From NCBI GenBank assembly GCA_021773235.1, contig JAJFKL010000032.1:186001-250000 (forward strand): a stretch of DNA of 64,000 nt, in the 5' to 3' direction. Below are positions 3,951-60,905 of the stretch, one piece after another. Origin of the DNA: Gammaproteobacteria bacterium (GTDB lineage: Bacteria > Pseudomonadota > Gammaproteobacteria > Eutrophobiales > Eutrophobiaceae). The notes below the pieces were generated by a model. It did no database searches, had not been told where the DNA came from, and worked only from the letters and a program-made list of their open reading frames with translations. The first letter of the stretch is position 1, and each line of letters opens with the position of its first letter. The position numbers were made by a program, and so were the translations under genes.

Positions 3951-4535
3951 ATGTCTTGTCAAATTCACGAAAGTGCGATTGTTGATGTCGGCGCCCAAAT
4001 TGGAGAAGGTAGCCGTGTCTGGCACTTTTCGCATGTATGTGCCGGTGCAAAAATTGGTAGTAATGTATCATTGGGGCAAAATGTTTTTGTCGGCAATCAA
4101 GTTGTTATTAAGGACAATTGCAAAATTCAGAACAATGTCTCTATCTACGATAATGTCTTTTTGGAAGAGGGGGTGTTTTGTGGACCGAGCATGGTATTTA
4201 CCAATGTTTATAATCCTCGCGCACTAATAGAAAGGAAGTCGGAGTATAAGGACACGCACATAAAAAAAGGGGTAACCCTGGGTGCTAATTGTACGGTTGT
4301 TTGCGGTGTGACTATTGGTAGTTTTGCTTTTGTTGGTGCTGGAGCTGTTGTGAAAAGTGATGTGCCTGATTATGCGCTTGTAGTAGGTGTTCCGGCAAAA
4401 CAGATAGGCTGGATAAGTGAATACGGTGAGCGCCTAACATTACCACTAGCTGGAGATGGAGATGCAGTTTGCTCGCATACAGGAAAGCAATATAGATTAA
4501 GAGACGGTCAATTGAACTCAATTGAAGAAACTTAA
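3951..4535 (+). CDS. wbpD: UDP-3-amino-sugar N-acetyltransferase, left-handed beta-helix (WbpD-like)
   Basis: 194 aa built of hexapeptide repeats such as [24 protein letters not shown] and [16 protein letters not shown], the left-handed beta-helix of trimeric acetyltransferases. The insert [21 protein letters not shown] between coils is typical of the WbpD/WlbB group and shapes the active site. It should acetylate the 3-amino group introduced by WbpE using acetyl-CoA. It follows wbpE after an 82-base gap. The C-terminal tail (about residues 165-194) lies outside the helix, as in the family. Confidence 0.85.
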
Positions 4536-45463: not shown

Positions 45464-45922
45464 ATGACAGCTGTTACTACGGGACACGTTCCCACGAATG
45501 AAGCCGGCTCGTTTACCGAGCACGCAAGCGTTAATGTAAGCTCCCGGCCCGCAAATAATGTTTATCGCGAGCTCTTATTAAAGCACTCGCAACGCAAGGA
45601 AAAAGAAAAAACACCTGCAAGCACTCCGAAAGCGAGCCCGTTTCATAGCTTGATCCCGCGTCTTTTTGGGGTTGACCTTAGCGGCATGTCCAACAGATTA
45701 TCATTTTCTGAAAGGGCTGATCTGTTTCAGGATTTGATAACTAAAGTATTCAGCGCCAATGAAGATGGCGTTATTACGGAACACGAAGCGAATACTCTTG
45801 TTCGTCTTCTTGCCGAGAAGTTTTTTTCCTCTCAGGTCGACTCCATGATTCACGGGCTCTTTGACGAAGCCGATTACTCAAGAAATCTCTTTGTTGGCAG
45901 AACGAGAACATTTAAACCATGA
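45464..45922 (+). CDS. Accessory-island protein with degenerate EF-hand-like segment
   Basis: 152 aa. The first 60 residues are polar and disordered-looking; FSANEDGVITEHEANTLVRL (about residues 100-119) resembles an EF-hand loop with the first Asp lost. No signal peptide. It overlaps the next gene by 4 bases, and the two probably act together. Not a recognised tail protein. Confidence 0.55.
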   Translation: MTAVTTGHVPTNEAGSFTEHASVNVSSRPANNVYRELLLKHSQRKEKEKTPASTPKASPFHSLIPRLFGVDLSGMSNRLSFSERADLFQDLITKVFSANEDGVITEHEANTLVRLLAEKFFSSQVDSMIHGLFDEADYSRNLFVGRTRTFKP

Positions 45923-46389
45923 CAGAAGACAATACTGGTGATGGCGACTCCTCTTCAGATAGACCAGAAGACTCGAAAGCGGTAGAGGGAGAATTGCAGG
46001 AAGCAGCCAGCGCGGTCAAGAAAATTTCAGAAAAACAGCCTGAAATGATGGAAGAAATGTTTTCTGTCATGATGCAGAGCGGCGGCAACTCCTTGCACGA
46101 TAAATTCAACGATGAGCACATAACCTCGTTAGTTGGATTAATGCAATCTCATGATGAAAGAGAATATGACCTTCATAAAACCGCACGGGAAAATGCTTAC
46201 TCAGGCTCTGTCCAGCGGAGGGTTATTTACGGTGGCGTTATCCTTTTGATTTTTATTTTTGTGATGTCCTCTCTGTATCTGTTCAAAGACAACACCGATG
46301 TTCTGGTGCCTATTCTCTCAGGGCTTGGTGGGCTTGGTTCCGGAATTTTAGGCGGTATTGGCATAGGAAAAAGCATGCCTGGCGGGTGA
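45919..46389 (+). CDS. Accessory-island membrane protein, two C-terminal TM segments
   Basis: 156 aa. A charged, acidic N-terminal 95 residues (GDGDSSSDRPEDSKAVEGEL), then RRVIYGGVILLIFIFVMSSL and a Gly-rich second hydrophobic segment (LVPILSGLGGLGSGILGG). The topology fits a protein that changes the inner membrane of the lysogen, for example superinfection exclusion; that is inference. Confidence 0.6.
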   Translation: MTEDNTGDGDSSSDRPEDSKAVEGELQEAASAVKKISEKQPEMMEEMFSVMMQSGGNSLHDKFNDEHITSLVGLMQSHDEREYDLHKTARENAYSGSVQRRVIYGGVILLIFIFVMSSLYLFKDNTDVLVPILSGLGGLGSGILGGIGIGKSMPGG

Positions 46390-46429
46390 TTCCATGTGAT
46401 GTTGAAGAAGGATCTCACATCGTGAAGCG

Positions 46430-46438
46430 TGGTATAAT
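46430..46438 (+). promoter_or_regulatory. Extended -10 promoter for the lipoprotein gene
   Basis: TGG-TATAAT at 46430-46438, with no clear -35. It is followed by a short palindrome TTGATT/AATCAA (46438-46451) and AAGGAGG (46454-46460). An own promoter inside a late operon marks this as a moron gene. Confidence 0.6.
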
Positions 46439-46467
46439 TGATTAAAATCAATCAAGGAGGATGACTT

Positions 46468-46932
46468 GTGCGCGCATTATTTCTTTTTTTTACCTTTCTC
46501 TGTCTAACGGGTTGTGAGCAGCTAGACGGGCTTATGTCGGCCAGTGAAGTAGCTGAGCTAAAACGCACTTTAGGTGAATATCAATACATTGATGTAGACC
46601 CTCAATTAACATTTGAATTTAGAGAGACTGAATTTACTTCTAAGAAATCAGCTTATGAAGATATCGATGTCACTTTTAACCTGAAGGTCACTCAACACAA
46701 CAAAGACTTCCCTGTAGATAAATACCAGTTGATCTTGAACATCTCTGTGCTAGATGAGAACGAAAACGAGGTTTATGATTTTTCGGAAGTGCTGAATGTA
46801 GATGCAGAAGTAAGTACTATCCAGCAAACGCAAAAACTGTTTAATTTTGAAGGTATTTATGCCTTAGGGCATAAGTTAGTAGTGGAAAAATATAACTGGT
46901 ATCCAATCAGGGACTTTAAGGCTTACAAATAA
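46468..46932 (+). CDS. Lipoprotein, possible superinfection-exclusion moron
   Basis: 154 aa with a GTG start behind a perfect AAGGAGG. The signal peptide ends in LCLTGC (lipid-modified Cys16). The mature part is small and beta-rich (LTFEFRETEF, VTFNLKVTQ, YQLILNISVLD). Phage lipoproteins of this size often block a receptor or DNA entry. It has its own extended -10 promoter, so it may be expressed in the lysogen. Confidence 0.65.
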   Translation: MRALFLFFTFLCLTGCEQLDGLMSASEVAELKRTLGEYQYIDVDPQLTFEFRETEFTSKKSAYEDIDVTFNLKVTQHNKDFPVDKYQLILNISVLDENENEVYDFSEVLNVDAEVSTIQQTQKLFNFEGIYALGHKLVVEKYNWYPIRDFKAYK

Positions 46933-46945
46933 TCTGCCTAGCTTA

Positions 46946-47140
46946 TTAATCATTGTCCAAATGGCTGATTAGGTCTTCTAGATCAACAGTTTTATTCTTG
47001 TTCTTTTTAAACCAGCTTATCATTGGCTTGTGTATTTCAGGGGCTTCTATACATTCTTTTAATTCTTCGTGAGACAGCCAGCAGTCAGACGCGTCCAGTG
47101 CGGCTTTCATTTCCTCTTTACTAATTTTATTGCCAGTCAT
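46946..47140 (-). CDS. Small acidic protein on the minus strand
   Basis: 64 aa, starting at 47140 and reading left, with AGGGAAAG upstream on the minus strand. Lys/Glu-rich helices (ISKEEMKAALDASDCWLS, HEELKECIE) and an ENKTVDLEDLISHL-like C-terminus. It lies tail-to-tail with the lipoprotein gene, the only minus-strand gene within the late region. Unknown function. Confidence 0.55.
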   Translation of the reverse strand: MTGNKISKEEMKAALDASDCWLSHEELKECIEAPEIHKPMISWFKKNKNKTVDLEDLISHLDND

Positions 47141-47164
47141 TTCTTTCCCTGATTCGACTAAGAT

Positions 47165-47192
47165 TTGACAATCCTACCAAAATCACTATCCT
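47165..47192 (+). promoter_or_regulatory. Promoter of the antirepressor control region
   Basis: TTGACA (47165-47170), 16 bases, TATCCT (47187-47192). A transcript would start near 47199, just before the segment GTGCTCAAAAC that is complementary to the antirepressor leader. Confidence 0.55.
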
Positions 47193-47198
47193 AAATAC

Positions 47199-47253
47199 AA
47201 GTGCTCAAAACACTCTGAAAGCGGACAGCCGCAACCGACAACGCGGCTTTTTT
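47199..47253 (+). ncRNA. Putative small antisense-type RNA (P1 C4/P4 CI-like)
   Basis: From a probable start near 47199 the RNA would carry GTGCTCAAAAC (47201-47211) near its 5' end and finish at hairpin AGCCGC/GCGGCT (47227-47232 with 47243-47248) and a T-run to 47253, about 55 nt. The 11-base segment is the exact complement of 47369-47379 in the leader of the BRO-N gene. Known relatives in P1 and P4 are short RNAs released from the same transcript that pair with the leader and stop antirepressor expression. Processing and function here are inferred. Confidence 0.5.
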
Positions 47254-47427
47254 GTGCCTGCATGAAAAGACTACGGTGACCAGCCAGTAACCTCACCCGA
47301 CGATTTATGCCGGGTGTAGGTGAATACAAGACCGCTTGCGGGAATAAACCTGCTGTTTCTTTTGGACAGTTTTGAGCACCCGGCACCCTATTTAGGGTCA
47401 ATCAAAAAAACCAAAAGGAGGTTCTCT
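47254..47427 (+). promoter_or_regulatory. Structured leader of the antirepressor gene with antisense target boxes
   Basis: Holds hairpins CACCCG/CGGGTG (47294-47299 with 47311-47316) and CCGC/GCGG (47332-47341). The target box GTTTTGAGCAC (47369-47379) pairs with 47201-47211, and TATTTAGG (47389-47396) pairs with CCTAAATA (47190-47197), which overlaps the -10. A frame from GTG 47320 (NTRPLAGINLLFLL) runs in phase into the antirepressor; from memory, similar leaders occur before prophage antirepressors. Confidence 0.55.
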
Positions 47428-48036
47428 ATGAGCCAGCAATCTAATGCCGTCTTACAGGACGGCGATCTTATTAGTTACGATTTCAACGGAAAACCAATCG
47501 ACCTTGTCCCGCATGATGGCGGTTTTTGGGTCACAGGCGAGGCGATAGGGGGCGCTTTGGGGTATCCAGACGCCCCTAGAGCTATTGCCAAAGTGTACGA
47601 GAGGAACCGCGAAGAGCTTAAAATCCATAGCTGCGTGGTCAAACTGACCACGCAGGGTGGCAACGGTAGCGGACAAAAACGGAGAATTCGCGTCTATAAC
47701 GAAGAGGCGATCATGATCATTACTATGCTATCCCGCCAGCCCAAGGCGGCAGAGTTTCGGGCATGGGCGGTGCAGATCCTCAAAGCTTACCGGCGCGGGG
47801 AATTGGTGATGTCTACGCCGGGAGAACGTGATCGTCTGCTGGAACTCTGCATTCGAGAGTCGGGCAATGGGAATATTGCCGCTATGGACACGCTGATTAC
47901 GCGCTACGGTTATCGCTCTGAATTGAAAGAAGAGCAGCAAGTATTGTTGGCGGTGTTGCGCGGCAAGGTGCAGGTTCAATTGCCTTCCCTGCCTAAATGC
48001 TTCATCGAGGCAGGCAGTCAAGGCGGTGATGTATGA
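47428..48036 (+). CDS. BRO-N domain antirepressor-like protein
   Basis: 202 aa from ATG 47428 behind AAGGAGG (47415-47421). The N-terminal 110 residues match the BRO-N domain: FWVTGEAIGGALGYPDA, ELKIHSCVVKLTT, RRIRVYNEEAIMIITMLSR and AAEFRAWAVQILKAYR. Such proteins inactivate phage repressors or bind DNA. The C-terminal part is helical. Its place inside the late operon, behind a separate promoter and antisense-type leader, suggests control of lysogeny independent of the right-end repressors. ATGA overlap with the next gene. Confidence 0.75.
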   Translation: MSQQSNAVLQDGDLISYDFNGKPIDLVPHDGGFWVTGEAIGGALGYPDAPRAIAKVYERNREELKIHSCVVKLTTQGGNGSGQKRRIRVYNEEAIMIITMLSRQPKAAEFRAWAVQILKAYRRGELVMSTPGERDRLLELCIRESGNGNIAAMDTLITRYGYRSELKEEQQVLLAVLRGKVQVQLPSLPKCFIEAGSQGGDV

Positions 48037-48323
48037 TGACTAATAAACGCACCGTTAAAGGCATGATGAATGTGCTTTATGATATTAGGAACATGCATAA
48101 GGCTTTGGCTGAGATTGAGGCCGACAAAGATCTGATTAAGCAATTACTGGCACGTATCGAGGTTGCTCAGACACGAGAGGAGGCAAAGCGCCTGACAGAG
48201 TGCGTCGAACAGATGCAGGATGATCTGTTTAGTGCCAAGGAAGAATACGACAAGCTTTATAAAACACTGAAAAAAACAGGGGTCAAAATCGATATAAGGG
48301 ACAAGTTTCATGTCCCCGCTTAA
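48033..48323 (+). CDS. Small coiled-coil protein coupled to the antirepressor
   Basis: 96 aa. The start overlaps the antirepressor stop as ATGA. Charged helices (LYDIRNMHKALAEIEADK, TREEAKRLTECVEQMQDD) indicate a coiled coil; no TM. Likely a partner of the antirepressor or a regulator. The start of a further small frame lies 14 bases before its stop. Confidence 0.6.
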   Translation: MMTNKRTVKGMMNVLYDIRNMHKALAEIEADKDLIKQLLARIEVAQTREEAKRLTECVEQMQDDLFSAKEEYDKLYKTLKKTGVKIDIRDKFHVPA

Positions 48324-48447
48324 TCTGACAGTGACCGAGCCGAGGCTTACTATTGTGGTTGTTATTCCTGATTTGCATCTCTTTGTGCTACTACGGGAGA
48401 TGCGCCAGGGGCTGGAAATGATGTTGTGCTATTTGAATTCAGAATAA
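48310..48447 (+). CDS. Small overlapping phage gene, unknown
   Basis: 45 aa. ATG 48310 with AGGGA at 48297-48301, overlapping the previous gene by 14 bases. The middle (RLTIVVVIPDLHLFVLL) is hydrophobic, maybe a single membrane segment or a beta strand. The stop lies just before an extended -10 promoter. Confidence 0.45.
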   Translation: MSPLNLTVTEPRLTIVVVIPDLHLFVLLREMRQGLEMMLCYLNSE

Positions 48448-48449
48448 AT

Positions 48450-48458
48450 TGCTATAAT
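48450..48458 (+). promoter_or_regulatory. Extended -10 promoter for the tail operon
   Basis: TGC-TATAAT (48450-48458), no clear -35. Transcription would start near 48465 at the same conserved box seen before the capsid gene. Confidence 0.65.
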
Positions 48459-48462
48459 GTGC

Positions 48463-48526
48463 ACTGAATAAGGCATAACGTATTTAAACGAAAGCCGGAA
48501 TCTCGAAAGGGATTCCGGCTTTTTTT
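48463..48526 (+). promoter_or_regulatory. Leader with conserved box and terminator-like hairpin, copy 2
   Basis: ACTGAATAAGGCATAACGTA begins at 48463, with perfect stem GCCGGAATC/GATTCCGGC (48494-48502 with 48511-48519), loop TCGAAAGG and seven T. Copy 1 is at 36502-36566. It stands 39 bases before the tape-measure gene. Confidence 0.7.
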
Positions 48527-58421: not shown

Positions 58422-58993
58422 TTGATTTCTTTCTATTGCCATTAATGGCGCTTGGCCGTTTGCAAGGTAGCGGCGAGGTCGAGTGGTTGCCTGATTGGTT
58501 GCGGCGTATTTTAAAGTACTTTGCAACGGGCGTTATCACCACGTTTGTTTTTACCTTTTGCAAACTGGATTATTCTGCCTGGCAATGGTGGCAGTGGCTG
58601 TTGTTGTTCGGCTCCGGCTGTTTGTCCAGTTGGTGGGGCGAGGGACGCGGTCTTGGTTGGGTAGCGGGGTGGTGGGTTGACGGCGAACGGCGACCTGATA
58701 GCGGTATCGATGGATGGATGGAATATATACCCACTCATAAGTTGCCTGAAGAGTGGCAGCAAAAAGTTGCAACGTCTTTAACTCGCGGTTGGTTTTGGGG
58801 TATGGCTATGATGATTCCTGCCTACTTTATCGATCCTCAATTTATACTATTCTGGATCGCTTACCCGTTTGCGGTTTTGTTCGCGTACCTTTGGGGCTGG
58901 TGCTTGCATTATATGTTTGGCGATATGGATGCGTGGGGCTGGTCCGAGTACTTGCGGCATCCGTTCGCGTTTATGATTTTGTTGATGTTGTAG
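58418..58993 (+). CDS. Trp-rich multi-spanning membrane protein
   Basis: 191 aa, ATGA-coupled to the preceding gene. About four TM segments and many Trp (WQWWQWLLLFGSGCLSSWW). The C-terminal pair of helices (GMAMMIPAYFIDPQFILFWI, FAVLFAYLWGWCLHYMF) is followed by a cytosolic-looking end. Not a holin by size. It could be an exclusion protein or a membrane factor for the fibre genes. It overlaps the convergent repressor gene by 23 bases. Confidence 0.55.
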   Translation: MIDFFLLPLMALGRLQGSGEVEWLPDWLRRILKYFATGVITTFVFTFCKLDYSAWQWWQWLLLFGSGCLSSWWGEGRGLGWVAGWWVDGERRPDSGIDGWMEYIPTHKLPEEWQQKVATSLTRGWFWGMAMMIPAYFIDPQFILFWIAYPFAVLFAYLWGWCLHYMFGDMDAWGWSEYLRHPFAFMILLML

Positions 58994-59387
58994 CGTTACT
59001 TTCACCCAATAAGGCCTGAACATAATCAAACGTGGCGATCTGTTTCTCGCGGGGCAGGCTGCTCCATTTCTGCTGAAGGTATTCGAGTTCGACGCCTTGG
59101 GCGAAGTCGTGGTATTGACTACCGAAATGACTGGCCAGGAAGGGGTAGGAGATATTAAACAGCTCAGCCAATGGAATTAAGACGCTCGGTCGGTGCGGCG
59201 CACCGTGTCGAGACTCCCAACGGATCGCTGTTCGCAAGGACACACCGCGCGCAGCAGCAACGTCTTTATGGGTAAGGTTCGCTTTGACCCGCGCATAGGC
59301 AATTCGGTCTGATAATCGTCGCAGACCGTAATTAAATCGCTTCTCAAGATCTTCAGCTACCTCTTTTTGGGTAGGCTTTTTGTTCAT
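58971..59387 (-). CDS. XRE-family transcriptional repressor
   Basis: 138 aa, ATG on the minus strand at 59387 with AGGTGA upstream. The helix-turn-helix is RVKANLTHKDVAAARGVSLR followed by TAIRWESRHG (about residues 33-62), of CI/Cro type. No peptidase domain, so cleavage-type induction is unlikely. It is the best candidate for the main prophage repressor or Cro-like regulator. Its binding sites probably include the repeats at 59409-59463. Confidence 0.72.
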   Translation of the reverse strand: MNKKPTQKEVAEDLEKRFNYGLRRLSDRIAYARVKANLTHKDVAAARGVSLRTAIRWESRHGAPHRPSVLIPLAELFNISYPFLASHFGSQYHDFAQGVELEYLQQKWSSLPREKQIATFDYVQALLGESNATTSTKS

Positions 59388-59408
59388 TCACCTACCCTGC
59401 ATGCAAGT

Positions 59409-59463
59409 TTAGTGACATTTAGCACAGTTTCGGCAGGGTCAAAACACAGTTTCGTGTCACTAA
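59409..59463. promoter_or_regulatory. Repeat operator upstream of the XRE repressor
   Basis: An 8-base inverted repeat TTAGTGAC/GTCACTAA (59409-59416 and 59456-59463) encloses two direct copies of CACAGTTTCG (59423-59432 and 59445-59454). It is 22 bases from the repressor start, as expected for its operator. The remaining space to 59569 holds no gene on the minus strand. Confidence 0.55.
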
Positions 59464-59569
59464 CCCCTGTTTTCTTGCAGAAAGGTTGATTTTAGGAATA
59501 CATTAAGAGCCAGCCGTTTGACGGTTATTAATAATAAAAAGAATAACAAGGAGAGGTTAAATTGAAGGC

Positions 59570-59977
59570 TTACTTATTATTTTCTGAGGTTGCATCAAGC
59601 AATACTCTTAGGGCTTTCGTGGCCGTGGGGCCACGCTTTTTTAGCTCTACAAGCAATTCTGTGTCTTCTTTTGACAACACATACTCACCGCCATCTTCTT
59701 TGATTTGGACTTTGCCTGTTTCAGTGCTGATTTGCAGCAAGGCCTGTTCTATTACTTTGCTGGCTGTTTTTATCGTCTCTGTCGCAGCAATGACCATGGC
59801 GTATGGGTCGCCGGACTCGGCGCCTACCATGGTTTTTTCTGCGTCGATGCTGGCTCTGAGCCTTAGCTCTGCCTCAGCCTGAAGGCTGCGACCATTAAGC
59901 TTGGCAAGAGCCTGCAGCTCTTTCTTGATTATTTTGTCCAGTCGTACTGAAGGCGCAGTTTCTCTTGTTTCTCCCAT
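59570..59977 (-). CDS. Ribbon-helix-helix DNA-binding protein
   Basis: 135 aa on the minus strand from 59977. The N-terminal Arc-type fold reads SVRLDKIIKKELQALAKLNG then RSLQAEAELRLRASID (residues about 10-45). The C-terminal 90 residues are helical and charged (IEQALLQISTETGKVQIKED), probably for oligomer formation. It should bind the GTATAC operator region that separates it from the second RHH gene. It has almost no leader before its start, so a short or leaderless message is possible. Confidence 0.7.
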   Translation of the reverse strand: MGETRETAPSVRLDKIIKKELQALAKLNGRSLQAEAELRLRASIDAEKTMVGAESGDPYAMVIAATETIKTASKVIEQALLQISTETGKVQIKEDGGEYVLSKEDTELLVELKKRGPTATKALRVLLDATSENNK

Positions 59978-59984
59978 ACGTCAA

Positions 59985-60038
59985 TTGTATACAAAATGTA
60001 TTGACATTCAATAAGACAAACTGTATACATATGTATAC
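59985..60038. promoter_or_regulatory. Divergent promoter-operator region with GTATAC palindromes
   Basis: TTGTATACAA at 59985-59994 and a perfect 16-base palindrome GTATACATATGTATAC at 60023-60038. A + strand promoter TTGACA (60001-60006), 17 bases, TATACA (60024-60029) has its -10 inside the palindrome. On the minus strand TATACA at 59987-59992 is in position to serve the 59977 gene. RHH dimers could block both. Confidence 0.65.
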
Positions 60039-60058
60039 AAAGTGCATAGAGATAGAAT

Positions 60059-60214
60059 ATGACAACAAAGAATCAAGATAAAAGCGTCATGCTGAGGGTT
60101 AAAAAATCGACTCATGACAAACTTAAGAAAGAGGCTAAAAGACAGAGCAGGTCTCTGATTGACACGACTGAAATGATTGTAAAGAAAGCTGTGGAGCAAC
60201 AATCGGCAGCTTGA
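60059..60214 (+). CDS. Small ribbon-helix-helix protein
   Basis: 51 aa, divergent from the other RHH gene. SVMLRVKKSTHDKLKKEAKR is an Arc/CopG-type strand and first helix, then QSRSLIDTTEMIVKKA. It is basic and of the usual minimal RHH length. Together with 59977 it forms a pair of small repressors around one operator, like Arc/Mnt in P22. Confidence 0.62.
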   Translation: MTTKNQDKSVMLRVKKSTHDKLKKEAKRQSRSLIDTTEMIVKKAVEQQSAA

Positions 60215-60437
60215 GAGATGTTTTTTTAAATATCTTCACCGTTACTGTAAAAACGTTTACGTCCTAGACGCTTTACTAAGAGAAGAGCCTCTGCCAGTGC
60301 ACTAACACTGACAGAGGCGGGTTGAGGTTACTGGCTTGGTCACCATTTTCGCCTCAGTCGTAAGAGTACAACACTCTTATGACTGAGCATAGCCAGCAGC
60401 CTCGTTTATGACAATGTGAGATAAACGGAGGAGTCAC
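60215..60437 (+). promoter_or_regulatory. Highly structured leader upstream of the CII-like gene
   Basis: Two strong hairpins are visible: CCTCTGCCAGTG/CACTGACAGAGG (60288-60317, one mismatch) and a 15-bp hairpin starting CTCAGTC (60353-60367 with 60373-60387, one G-T pair, loop ACAAC). A weaker CGTTTA/TAAACG stem sits near the ribosome site AGGAG. No gene. It may control translation or termination. Confidence 0.6.
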
Positions 60438-60905
60438 ATGGCTAGTGACATTGATATAGCGGTAGATAAGACCGCGCGGAATTTTAAGAACGAAAAGGGT
60501 GAGCGTGGTTTTACTGCCCTGGCTGAATCACTTGGCCAGAATCCACGCTACTTCAGCAACAAGGTGAGCGCTGGTTACGACGATGCTCACCTGAATCCCA
60601 ATGAACTTCTGGCAGTCATGAACCAGGCTGACAATTACGAGCTCCTTCACACCTACGCGCGTTTATGTCGTCGACCACAAGTTTGTGTTGAGCTGGGGGA
60701 ATATTCCGATGTTTCTGATGTTGCGTTATTAGACGCCTGGTTAAACCTGCAGATTGATCAGGGGCAAACAGCAGACGCGATTAAGAAGGCCATAGCAAAA
60801 GGCGATATCACACGAAAAGCATTTAACGAAATTGATCGTGAAATGCATGAAGACATTACCTGCATGTTCGAACTTCGCGCACGTCTCGAAGGCTTGGTTC
60901 GATGA
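60438..60905 (+). CDS. CII-like phage regulatory protein (CP76 family)
   Basis: 155 aa behind CGGAGGAG. SDIDIAVDKTARNFKNEKGE, FTALAESLGQNPRYFSNKVS (HTH) and HLNPNELLAVMNQADNYELLH match the Phage CP76/CII family. It probably activates lysogeny or integrase genes. The leader before it is strongly structured, so synthesis is likely controlled. ATGA overlap with the next small gene. Start of the early operon. Confidence 0.78.
   Translation: MASDIDIAVDKTARNFKNEKGERGFTALAESLGQNPRYFSNKVSAGYDDAHLNPNELLAVMNQADNYELLHTYARLCRRPQVCVELGEYSDVSDVALLDAWLNLQIDQGQTADAIKKAIAKGDITRKAFNEIDREMHEDITCMFELRARLEGLVR

What the first reader, a model, noticed from the sequence alone, without database searches (positions are those of the whole stretch)
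47165..47430. Antisense-type immunity control region before a BRO-N antirepressor
GTGCTCAAAAC (47201-47211) is the exact complement of 47369-47379, and CCTAAATA (47190-47197) complements TATTTAGG (47389-47396), in the same transcript order as the C4-ant system of P1 and the CI RNA of P4. A promoter (47165-47192), a small terminator hairpin (47227-47253) and further hairpins sit between. The target boxes flank the approach to the antirepressor ribosome site (47415). Such systems are known at immunity loci, but here it lies within the tail operon of a lambda-like phage, which I have not seen described.
Basis: partly seen in the sequence, partly recalled or inferred. Interest (0 to 1): 0.75.

Follow-up and report, generated by a model that had tools for sequence, protein, structure and literature searches.

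The report
C4-type antisense switch before phage antirepressor
A prophage carries a three-part RNA switch in front of a gene thought to undo its own dormancy; the middle part belongs to an RNA family so far listed without a settled job, and the same arrangement, with its pairing letters changed in step, recurs in many phages.

Summary
The 11-nt complementarity is real and marks an RNA-pairing region upstream of a Bro-N antirepressor gene. The antisense element is 47308-47393, a match to Rfam RF02221 (sRNA-Xcc1, 60.7 bits, cut-off 53). The upstream terminated RNA (47199-47253) mimics the ant ribosome-site region, as a1b1/IsrK does in Salmonella phage Gifsy-1. In RF02221-like elements from viral and bacterial contigs the P3 loop (b') and junction 3/1 (a') complement both the upstream RNA and the ant leader, and the partners co-vary: a1+b1 in order in 88 of 134 loci against 1.6% after swapping partners; b2 at the start codon in 68 of 106 against 3.3%; five positions each show all four Watson-Crick pairs beyond every shuffle. 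A distant phage with the same tail-operon layout (L250) has different but mutually complementary boxes. The second box (CCTAAATA/TATTTAGG) is chance. Rfam's C4 model does not hit the window, so this is a C4-like variant. It suggests a job for an RNA family that has been discussed as a virulence sRNA. RNA in this organism and repression itself are untested.

The parts
47165..47192 (+). sigma-70-like promoter (TTGACA-16-TATCCT) of the upstream RNA; likely start near 47199
   Evidence: sequence, scan (10/12 matches; number of such sites not above chance)
47199..47253 (+). short terminated RNA carrying a1 and b1 (target mimic, position of c4-a1b1/IsrK)
   Evidence: fold; blastn of its terminator part (47218-47262) hits stretches upstream of ant in Stx phage phi296 and of an rha-like gene in phage VHML; weak E-values (0.02 and 0.9)
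47201..47211 (+). box a1, exact complement of a' (11 nt)
47214..47221 (+). box b1 TCTGAAAG, pairs with CTTTTGGA 47359-47366 (8 bp, two G-U) in the whole-leader fold
   Evidence: the isolated duplex shifts the last pairs; inverted repeat I1
47221..47253 (+). two exclusive hairpins: GCGG 47221-47224 / CCGC 47229-47232, or GCCGC 47228-47232 / GCGGC 47243-47247 plus T run 47248-47253 (terminator)
   Evidence: pattern present in the window; 22 of 71 relatives meet the strict pattern, base shuffles 0.1%
47308..47393 (+). C4-like antisense element, Rfam RF02221 sRNA-Xcc1, three-way junction P1/P2/P3
   Evidence: 60.7 bits, gathering 53, E 7.3e-10; only Rfam hit at gathering in the window
47357..47365 (+). 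b' = P3 loop TTCTTTTGG, complement of b1 and of the SD region (b2)
   Evidence: sequence; duplexes
47369..47379 (+). a' = junction 3/1 and the start of the 3' arm of P1, complement of a1; TTTTGA part complement of a2
47402..47407 (+). a2, TCAAAA, complement of TTTTGA in a' (6 nt, weak on its own)
   Evidence: (window row)
47411..47419 (+). b2 CCAAAAGGA, overlaps the SD; 47411-47418 pairs with 47358-47365, 8 bp with one G-U
   Evidence: one search reports the exact 6-nt part CAAAAG
47416..47421 (+). Shine-Dalgarno AGGAGG of ant
   Evidence: sequence
47428..48036 (+). antirepressor gene, Bro-N domain, 202 aa
   Evidence: Pfam Bro-N 1.1e-9; PHROG anti-repressor families, best 4.6e-15

Best explanation
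A C4-type antisense control unit for a phage antirepressor, built on the RF02221 RNA. A promoter inside the tail operon makes a short terminated RNA (a1b1). Readthrough gives a longer RNA with the RF02221 element and the Bro-N antirepressor. The element, probably released by processing, presents b' (P3 loop) and a' (junction 3/1) and pairs with a2 and b2 at the ant ribosome site, so that no antirepressor is made and the repressor holds. The short a1b1 RNA copies the ribosome-site region, in the same order and sense, and titrates the antisense RNA, relieving repression as IsrK does. Pairing of the element with nascent a1b1 may also favour the terminator over the competing hairpin, as described for P4 CI RNA. 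Shown here: anatomy, Rfam match, complementarity and its co-variation across loci. Inferred: transcripts, processing, repression, titration, attenuation.
For: RF02221 match. Swap tests on 134 non-redundant RF02221-like elements (window included): loop to upstream >=6 nt in 80% own against 14% swapped, loop to downstream leader 67% against 8%; a1 and b1 in order 88 of 134 against 1.6% (maximum of 50 permutations 4.5%); b2 within 16 nt of the start codon 68 of 106 against 3.3% (maximum 8.6%); both together 42 of 106 with 39 distinct b' loops. Of 28 of the 134 also scanned with Rfam, 26 reach the RF02221 cut-off (not L061, L114). Fixed-register test on 102 loci: 56.9% Watson-Crick against 38.6% (sd 1.4, maximum of 2000 shuffles 43.8%); five of seven positions exceed all 300 shuffles made per position and each shows all four pair types. 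L250: same order of tail genes (tube, chaperone, module, Bro-N, tape measure), RF02221 70.9 bits, Bro-N 39% identical, different boxes but a1 GCTGATAAC / a' GTTATCAGC / a2 CTGATAA. Genes after the 42 full modules: KilA-N 9, pRha 6, Bro-N 5, ORF6N 5, P22_AR_N 2, AntA 2 members, so at most 29 of 42. The Gifsy-1 isrK locus has the same layout by Rfam: c4-a1b1 and isrK (overlapping), then C4, then the antirepressor-like gene. Short IsrK activating translation of its own readthrough mRNA is published (PMC4825925: abstract, section 21 and passages). Outside evidence for a stable RNA: 88-nt sRNA-Xcc1 mapped by RACE (PMC2996969, passages); an 89-nt sRNA-Xcc1 with 40,293 transcriptome and 290 footprint reads, RCV 0.02, in E. 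coli O157 EDL933 (PMC5331693, passages), where I find an 89-nt RF02221 match directly upstream of ant. Window duplex energies: a1b1 with P3-J3/1 -25.8, P3-J3/1 with the leader -18.1 kcal/mol.
Against: The window itself is one of the weaker examples: b1 pairs only with two G-U pairs, so it fails the exact a1+b1 test, and a2 is 6 nt. Of the 106 loci with a usable start codon, 29 have upstream boxes but no b2 at the start codon (21 of them Lysobacterales by record title), and 35, the window among them, do not meet the strict upstream test. At least 13 of the 42 genes after full modules match none of the six antirepressor domains counted. A Bro-N relative (L249, 53% identical) has no Rfam match at gathering in the stretch held. 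Across the 42 full loci a1b1 is not generally the stronger partner (21 of 42), so simple titration by strength is not supported. Window folds give ambiguous SD accessibility (0.49, 0.03, 0.49, 0.49, 0.48 for five 5' ends). Rfam C4, c4-a1b1 and isrK models do not hit the region.
Confidence: 0.78

Rival explanations
1. Cis-only switch: the RF02221 element is not released but stays in the ant leader, its P3 loop and junction kissing the ribosome site of the same RNA, and the short a1b1 RNA acts in trans to open it (IsrK-like activation without a free antisense RNA).
For: All pairings seen are equally possible within one transcript; the whole-leader fold pairs a1b1 with b'a'; IsrK works on its own readthrough transcript (PMC4825925).
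Against: Stable 88-89-nt RNAs of the element's length are reported (PMC2996969; PMC5331693). In 29 of 106 loci the upstream boxes match without a b2 at the start codon, which a purely cis leader switch does not need.
Confidence: 0.15
2. One reading: the 47199-47253 RNA is the antisense repressor and acts on the ant leader.
For: It is complementary to 47369-47379 upstream of ant, has its own promoter-like site and folds with a terminator.
Against: Its boxes have the same sense as a2/b2, so it cannot pair with the ribosome site; what it pairs with is the antisense element. The second box is chance.
Confidence: 0.03
3. Decayed relic: a once working module, now inactive in this prophage.
For: b1 has two G-U pairs and a2 is short.
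Against: RF02221 match above its cut-off, 11-nt a1/a', open ant frame with SD, hairpin switch kept.
Confidence: 0.08
4. Trans-acting host or virulence sRNA, as RF02221 has been discussed in plant and fish pathogens, with phage linkage incidental.
For: sRNA-Xcc1 is reported under HrpG/HrpX control (title of Chen 2011, seen only in reference lists) and is discussed as virulence-linked (PMC12189769; PMC8780938; passages).
Against: Co-variation with the boxes at the adjacent gene start and antirepressor domains in many of those genes.
Confidence: 0.03

Closest known systems
C4 antisense RNA of phages P1/P7 and relatives (Rfam RF01695, with c4-a1b1 RF03163)
   Same: Order a1b1 - antisense RNA - a2b2 at the ribosome site - antirepressor. 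In the Gifsy-1 C4 fold an 8-nt hairpin loop (TCGGTGAT) and the 8-nt junction after it (TACGCCAA) are, by eye, complementary to both the IsrK stretch and the leader printed in that call, as b' and a' are in the window.
   Different: No C4 or c4-a1b1 model match in the window even at E<=10; different conserved core (AAUACAA..ACC..GGGAAU); placed in a tail operon.
IsrK / orf45 / AnrP locus of Salmonella phage Gifsy-1
   Same: Short terminated RNA upstream, readthrough transcript, stable processed RNA (STnc1160) between, antirepressor downstream (PMC4825925).
   Different: IsrK model not met in the window; IsrK acts through orf45 and translational coupling, whereas no separate frame of 50 aa or more lies between the element and ant here (shorter frames not examined).
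P4 CI RNA (seqA-CI-seqC) and N15 anti-immunity RNA
   Same: Processed antisense RNA flanked by an upstream and a downstream complementary site (P4 as summarised in PMC4825925; N15 small processed RNA from a reference title). N15 carries isrK plus C4 matches just upstream of the gene group that ends in its annotated anti-repressor Ant.
   Different: P4 CI controls replication genes by termination; the P4 sequence was not examined here.
sRNA-Xcc1 (Rfam RF02221)
   Same: The window element is a member by score.
   Different: Described as an sRNA of Xanthomonas with unknown or virulence-linked role; upstream of symE in integron cassettes (PMC12444791, passages).
P22 sar RNA and phage Phi24B 24B_1
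   Same: Small RNAs reported (sar) or proposed (24B_1) to lower antirepressor synthesis; the 24B_1 precursor lies between lom and vb_24B_43 (PMC10732415; PMC12197685).
   Different: No three-part box structure is described in the passages read; Phi24B sequence not examined.

Membership tests
RF02221 sRNA-Xcc1 | covariance model score at or above gathering (53 bits) | tested here: met
   60.7 bits over positions 1-87 of 87
RF01695 C4 antisense RNA | covariance model match | tested here: not met
   no match at E<=10 in 46000-48500; none at gathering in the window
RF01695 C4 antisense RNA | element carrying b' in a hairpin loop and a' in the following junction, complementary to a site at the antirepressor ribosome site | tested here: met
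   window: b2 8 bp with one G-U, a2 6 nt; relatives: 68 of 106 have b2 at the start codon
RF01695 C4 antisense RNA | upstream a1b1 copy of the target | tested here: met
   a1 11 nt exact, b1 8 bp with two G-U; b1 does not meet the exact >=6 criterion
RF01695 C4 antisense RNA | antisense RNA accumulates and represses ant in trans | not testable with these tools
   only relatives: 89-nt abundant RNA in EDL933 (PMC5331693)
RF03163 c4-a1b1 / RF01394 isrK | covariance model match of the upstream RNA | tested here: not met
   no match in the region at E<=10; the one weak isrK hit in the host genome lies elsewhere, over the end of a protein-coding frame and a terminator-like stretch
Bro-N antirepressor | Bro-N domain above Pfam cut-off | tested here: met
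   39.2 bits, cut-off 25.6
P4 CI RNA | pairing with the upstream site causes premature termination | not testable with these tools
   only the alternative hairpins were seen

The most novel reading that the evidence does not exclude
RF02221 (sRNA-Xcc1) as a whole is a second, widespread class of C4-type antisense RNA whose ancestral job is to hold phage antirepressors silent. It moves between phage gene neighbourhoods, tail operons included, with its boxes diverging fast and in step. In Lysobacterales genomes it has been taken over in a form that keeps the target mimic but has lost the ribosome-site target, so that there it would act as an attenuator of its own transcript or as a decoy or guard against incoming phages. 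The 'virulence sRNA' reading of its copies in Xylella, Xanthomonas and Aeromonas would then be mostly mistaken.
Probability: 0.5. Interest if true: 0.75.

Novelty: new variant of a known kind. Interest (0 to 1): 0.62.

Why it matters
It offers a function, and a testable one, for an Rfam family that papers have treated as an orphan or virulence sRNA. The boxes behave like a specificity code: 39 different b' loops among 42 full modules, so which phages silence each other's antirepressors might be predicted from sequence. It also places an induction switch inside a tail operon, with two different sets of boxes (window and L250).

Tried and rejected
C4, c4-a1b1 and isrK Rfam models on the region: no match. 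The weak isrK hit elsewhere in the host genome lies over the end of a protein-coding frame and a terminator-like stretch (by eye). The second box of the finding: rejected as chance. Titration by relative duplex strength: not supported over 42 loci (21 of 42). RF02221 in 53 genomes of the host's family, the window's own included: only the window's own above cut-off; a sub-threshold match in G042 (52.1 bits) has no antirepressor-like frame in the 3 kb fetched, by eye. Search for closer prophage relatives: two Bro-N relatives in viral contigs, one with and one without the RNA; a tail tube query gave none; tape-measure relatives L255-L259 have no RF02221 match in the stretches held, and the ORF lists (80 aa or more) of three of them show no Bro-N-like gene before the tape measure, by eye, so the module looks like an insert between chaperone and tape-measure genes. 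A search for other 7-mers complementary to b' in the 5-14 kb held of 25 loci picked by box type (mostly Lysobacterales) showed no second a2/b2-like layout in the Lysobacterales loci, judged by eye. Rows dropped before counting: 234 sites far enough from contig ends, 185 kept after stem/length/energy filters, 134 after removing >90% similar ones; 106 of 134 had a usable start codon; 102 of 134 had an independent GCGG anchor. The filters do not use complementarity. The 134 were defined by pattern and stem, not by the Rfam model; 28 of them were also scanned with Rfam and 26 reached the RF02221 cut-off, L061 and L114 did not.

Full report
Observation. The 11-nt pair is the core of a 21-nt, 81% complementary inverted repeat, 47201-47221 / 47359-47379; 1 of 2000 dinucleotide shuffles reached 11 nt. 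The second pair is chance: 203 of 2000 shuffles reach 8 nt, it overlaps the -10 hexamer, and relatives do not keep it (0 of 42).

What is there. The only Rfam match at gathering in 64 kb is RF02221, sRNA-Xcc1, at 47308-47393, 60.7 bits. Downstream follow the SD and a 202-aa Bro-N antirepressor. Upstream is a promoter-like site and a 55-nt RNA with a terminator. The unit lies between tail chaperone-type genes and the tape-measure gene, in a prophage with an HTH protein at 58971-59387, a TraY-domain protein, a CII-type regulator and integrases further right.

Relatives. From 234 sites, 134 non-redundant elements with a closing stem were kept, the window among them. These were not chosen by the Rfam model; of 28 that were also scanned with it, 26 reach the cut-off. 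The loop of P3 and the junction 3/1 were compared with up to 150 nt upstream and 85 nt downstream, and the same was done after swapping partners between loci. Loop to upstream: >=6 nt in 80% own against 14% swapped; loop to downstream 67% against 8%; junction to upstream 78% against 21%; junction to downstream 58% against 15%. Requiring both upstream boxes in order: 88 of 134 against 1.6%; requiring b2 within 16 nt of the start codon: 68 of 106 against 3.3%; both: 42 of 106, with 39 different loops. A fixed-register test, anchored on GCGG upstream and on the parsed P3 hairpin, gave 56.9% Watson-Crick pairs against 38.6% (sd 1.4; maximum of 2000 shuffles 43.8%). Of thirteen registers tried this one was the best. 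Five of its seven positions exceeded all 300 shuffles made per position and each used all four pair types; the other two carried no information.

The nearest test is L250, a viral contig with the same order: tail tube, chaperone, an extra gene, the module, Bro-N and a tape-measure protein (the gene after the chaperone matches DUF1799 only below its cut-off). Its Bro-N protein is 39% identical to the window's and its RF02221 score is 70.9 bits. Its boxes differ from the window's, yet a1 GCTGATAAC, a' GTTATCAGC and a2 CTGATAA match each other, and so, by eye, do b1, b' and b2. Named phages: Aaphi23, with the unit between Q and lysis genes upstream of ant (RF02221 86.1 bits), and Stx phage phi296 upstream of ant (65.4 bits). 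VHML upstream of an rha-like gene is similar by eye but gives no match at gathering.

Known systems. In Gifsy-1, Rfam calls c4-a1b1 and isrK (overlapping) and then C4 upstream of an antirepressor-like gene, and the C4 fold has the same three-way shape, with an 8-nt loop and an 8-nt junction as the candidate b' and a'. The published mechanism there is that short IsrK binds and activates its own readthrough mRNA, with a stable RNA, STnc1160, processed from the region between; the authors compare it with P4 seqA/CI (PMC4825925: abstract, section 21 and passages). L003 carries an isrK-C4 unit and an RF02221 unit in tandem before one ORF6N-domain gene, and L091 carries isrK, C4 and, some 560 bases on, RF02221. 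Passages of PMC12189769 list C4, isrK and sRNA-Xcc1 within 400 bases in Xylella, where the RF02221 copies are discussed as virulence-related. The window element fails the C4 model, so it is filed as C4-like, not as C4.

Evidence that the element is an RNA of its own comes from elsewhere. An 88-nt sRNA was mapped by RACE in Xanthomonas campestris (PMC2996969, passages). In E. coli O157 EDL933 an 89-nt sRNA-Xcc1 has 40,293 transcriptome reads and 290 footprint reads (PMC5331693, passages); I find one RF02221 match of 89 nt in the stretch scanned, on the same strand, directly before ant in the newer assembly. That these are the same locus is inferred from strand, length and position.

Mechanism. 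Pairing energies in the window: a1b1 with P3-J3/1 -25.8, P3-J3/1 with the ant leader -18.1 kcal/mol. The minimum-energy fold of the whole leader pairs 47201-47211 with 47369-47379 and 47214-47221 with 47359-47366, while keeping the terminator stem; the computed duplex with the leader uses 47402-47407 and 47411-47418. SD accessibility over five assumed 5' ends is ambiguous (0.49, 0.03, 0.49, 0.49, 0.48). Over 42 loci neither partner is generally stronger, so the balance must come from amounts, kinetics or proteins. The 5' arm of the window's terminator can instead pair with GCGG next to b1, giving two exclusive hairpins; 22 of 71 relatives meet a strict form of this pattern, shuffles 0.1%. I take repression of ant by the element as most likely, titration by a1b1 as likely, and control of the terminator as possible.

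Against. The window is not a textbook case (b1 with two G-U pairs, a2 of 6 nt). Thirty-five of 106 loci miss the strict upstream test and 29 have upstream boxes only; 21 of these 29 are Lysobacterales by record title (order of Rhodanobacter and Luteimonas looked up, of the other genera recalled). Their 29 downstream genes include few antirepressor domains and one SymE. An alternative reading for those is given as the novel case. At least 13 of the 42 genes after full modules match none of the six antirepressor domains counted. A Bro-N relative without a match exists (L249). No transcript data exist for this organism here.

Print. Searches for sRNA-Xcc1 (18 papers listed), for RF02221 (2 papers), with C4 antisense (1 paper), with antirepressor, symE and C4 RNA and with phage terms (only the 8 best of 13,036 loose matches listed) showed, in titles, abstract starts and the passages I opened, no paper in the held library that links RF02221 to antirepressor control. 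I opened passages of six of the 18, not the rest. Chen 2011 on sRNA-Xcc1 is not held, and most subscription papers are missing from the library, so absence is not proven. That P1 C4 has a1b1 and a2b2 sites in this order is recalled; Rfam's family names agree, and PMC12197685 (passages) describes C4 action around the ant ribosome site.

Noticed in passing
L125, L133, L137, L153, L160, L161, L180, L184, L196, L198, L200, L202, L206, L222, L225, L226, L230, L232, L234 and others: Lysobacterales RF02221-type loci keep co-varying a1b1 upstream (many different b' loops) but show no a2b2 at the following gene, whose product has GYxLPE near its start in the majority consensus.
   Followed up: partly
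L003:662-1794; L091:843-1672: isrK / C4 units and an RF02221 unit stand close together before antirepressor-type genes, in L003 also with c4-a1b1 and with isrJ after the gene: two C4-type controls in a row.
   Followed up: partly
L002, L006, L018, L031, L033, L101, L103: A group of environmental viral contigs shares a different element with the same core (GCCGGGATGG..AATACAA.ACC..GGGAAT..CCATCGGAATCCCGG), with no a1b1 RNA seen upstream by eye. Unexplained.
   Followed up: no
L202, about 413 bases upstream of the element near 4132: What looks like the 3' half of a second RF02221-like element on the opposite strand, with the same CTGTGTG loop core.
   Followed up: no
L070, L165, L169: Two core matches or modules, with different P3 loops, within a few hundred to two thousand bases of each other.
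   Followed up: no
G042:C4:157278-157358 (L248): Sub-threshold RF02221 match (52.1 bits) in a genome of the same genus, without an antirepressor-like frame in the 3 kb fetched.
   Followed up: partly
window 58971-60905: HTH protein (possible repressor), a TraY-domain protein and a CII (CP76) regulator form the likely immunity region, about 11 kb from the antirepressor.
   Followed up: no
window 45464-47140: Four open frames without a Pfam family above cut-off (one on the minus strand) sit between the chaperone-type genes and the module, an accessory-gene spot; tape-measure relatives L255-L257 show few or no such genes there by eye.
   Followed up: partly
window 440-30085: A surface-polysaccharide-type gene cluster (by eye from translations) precedes the prophage, whose genes appear to start near 30.2 kb.
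   Followed up: no
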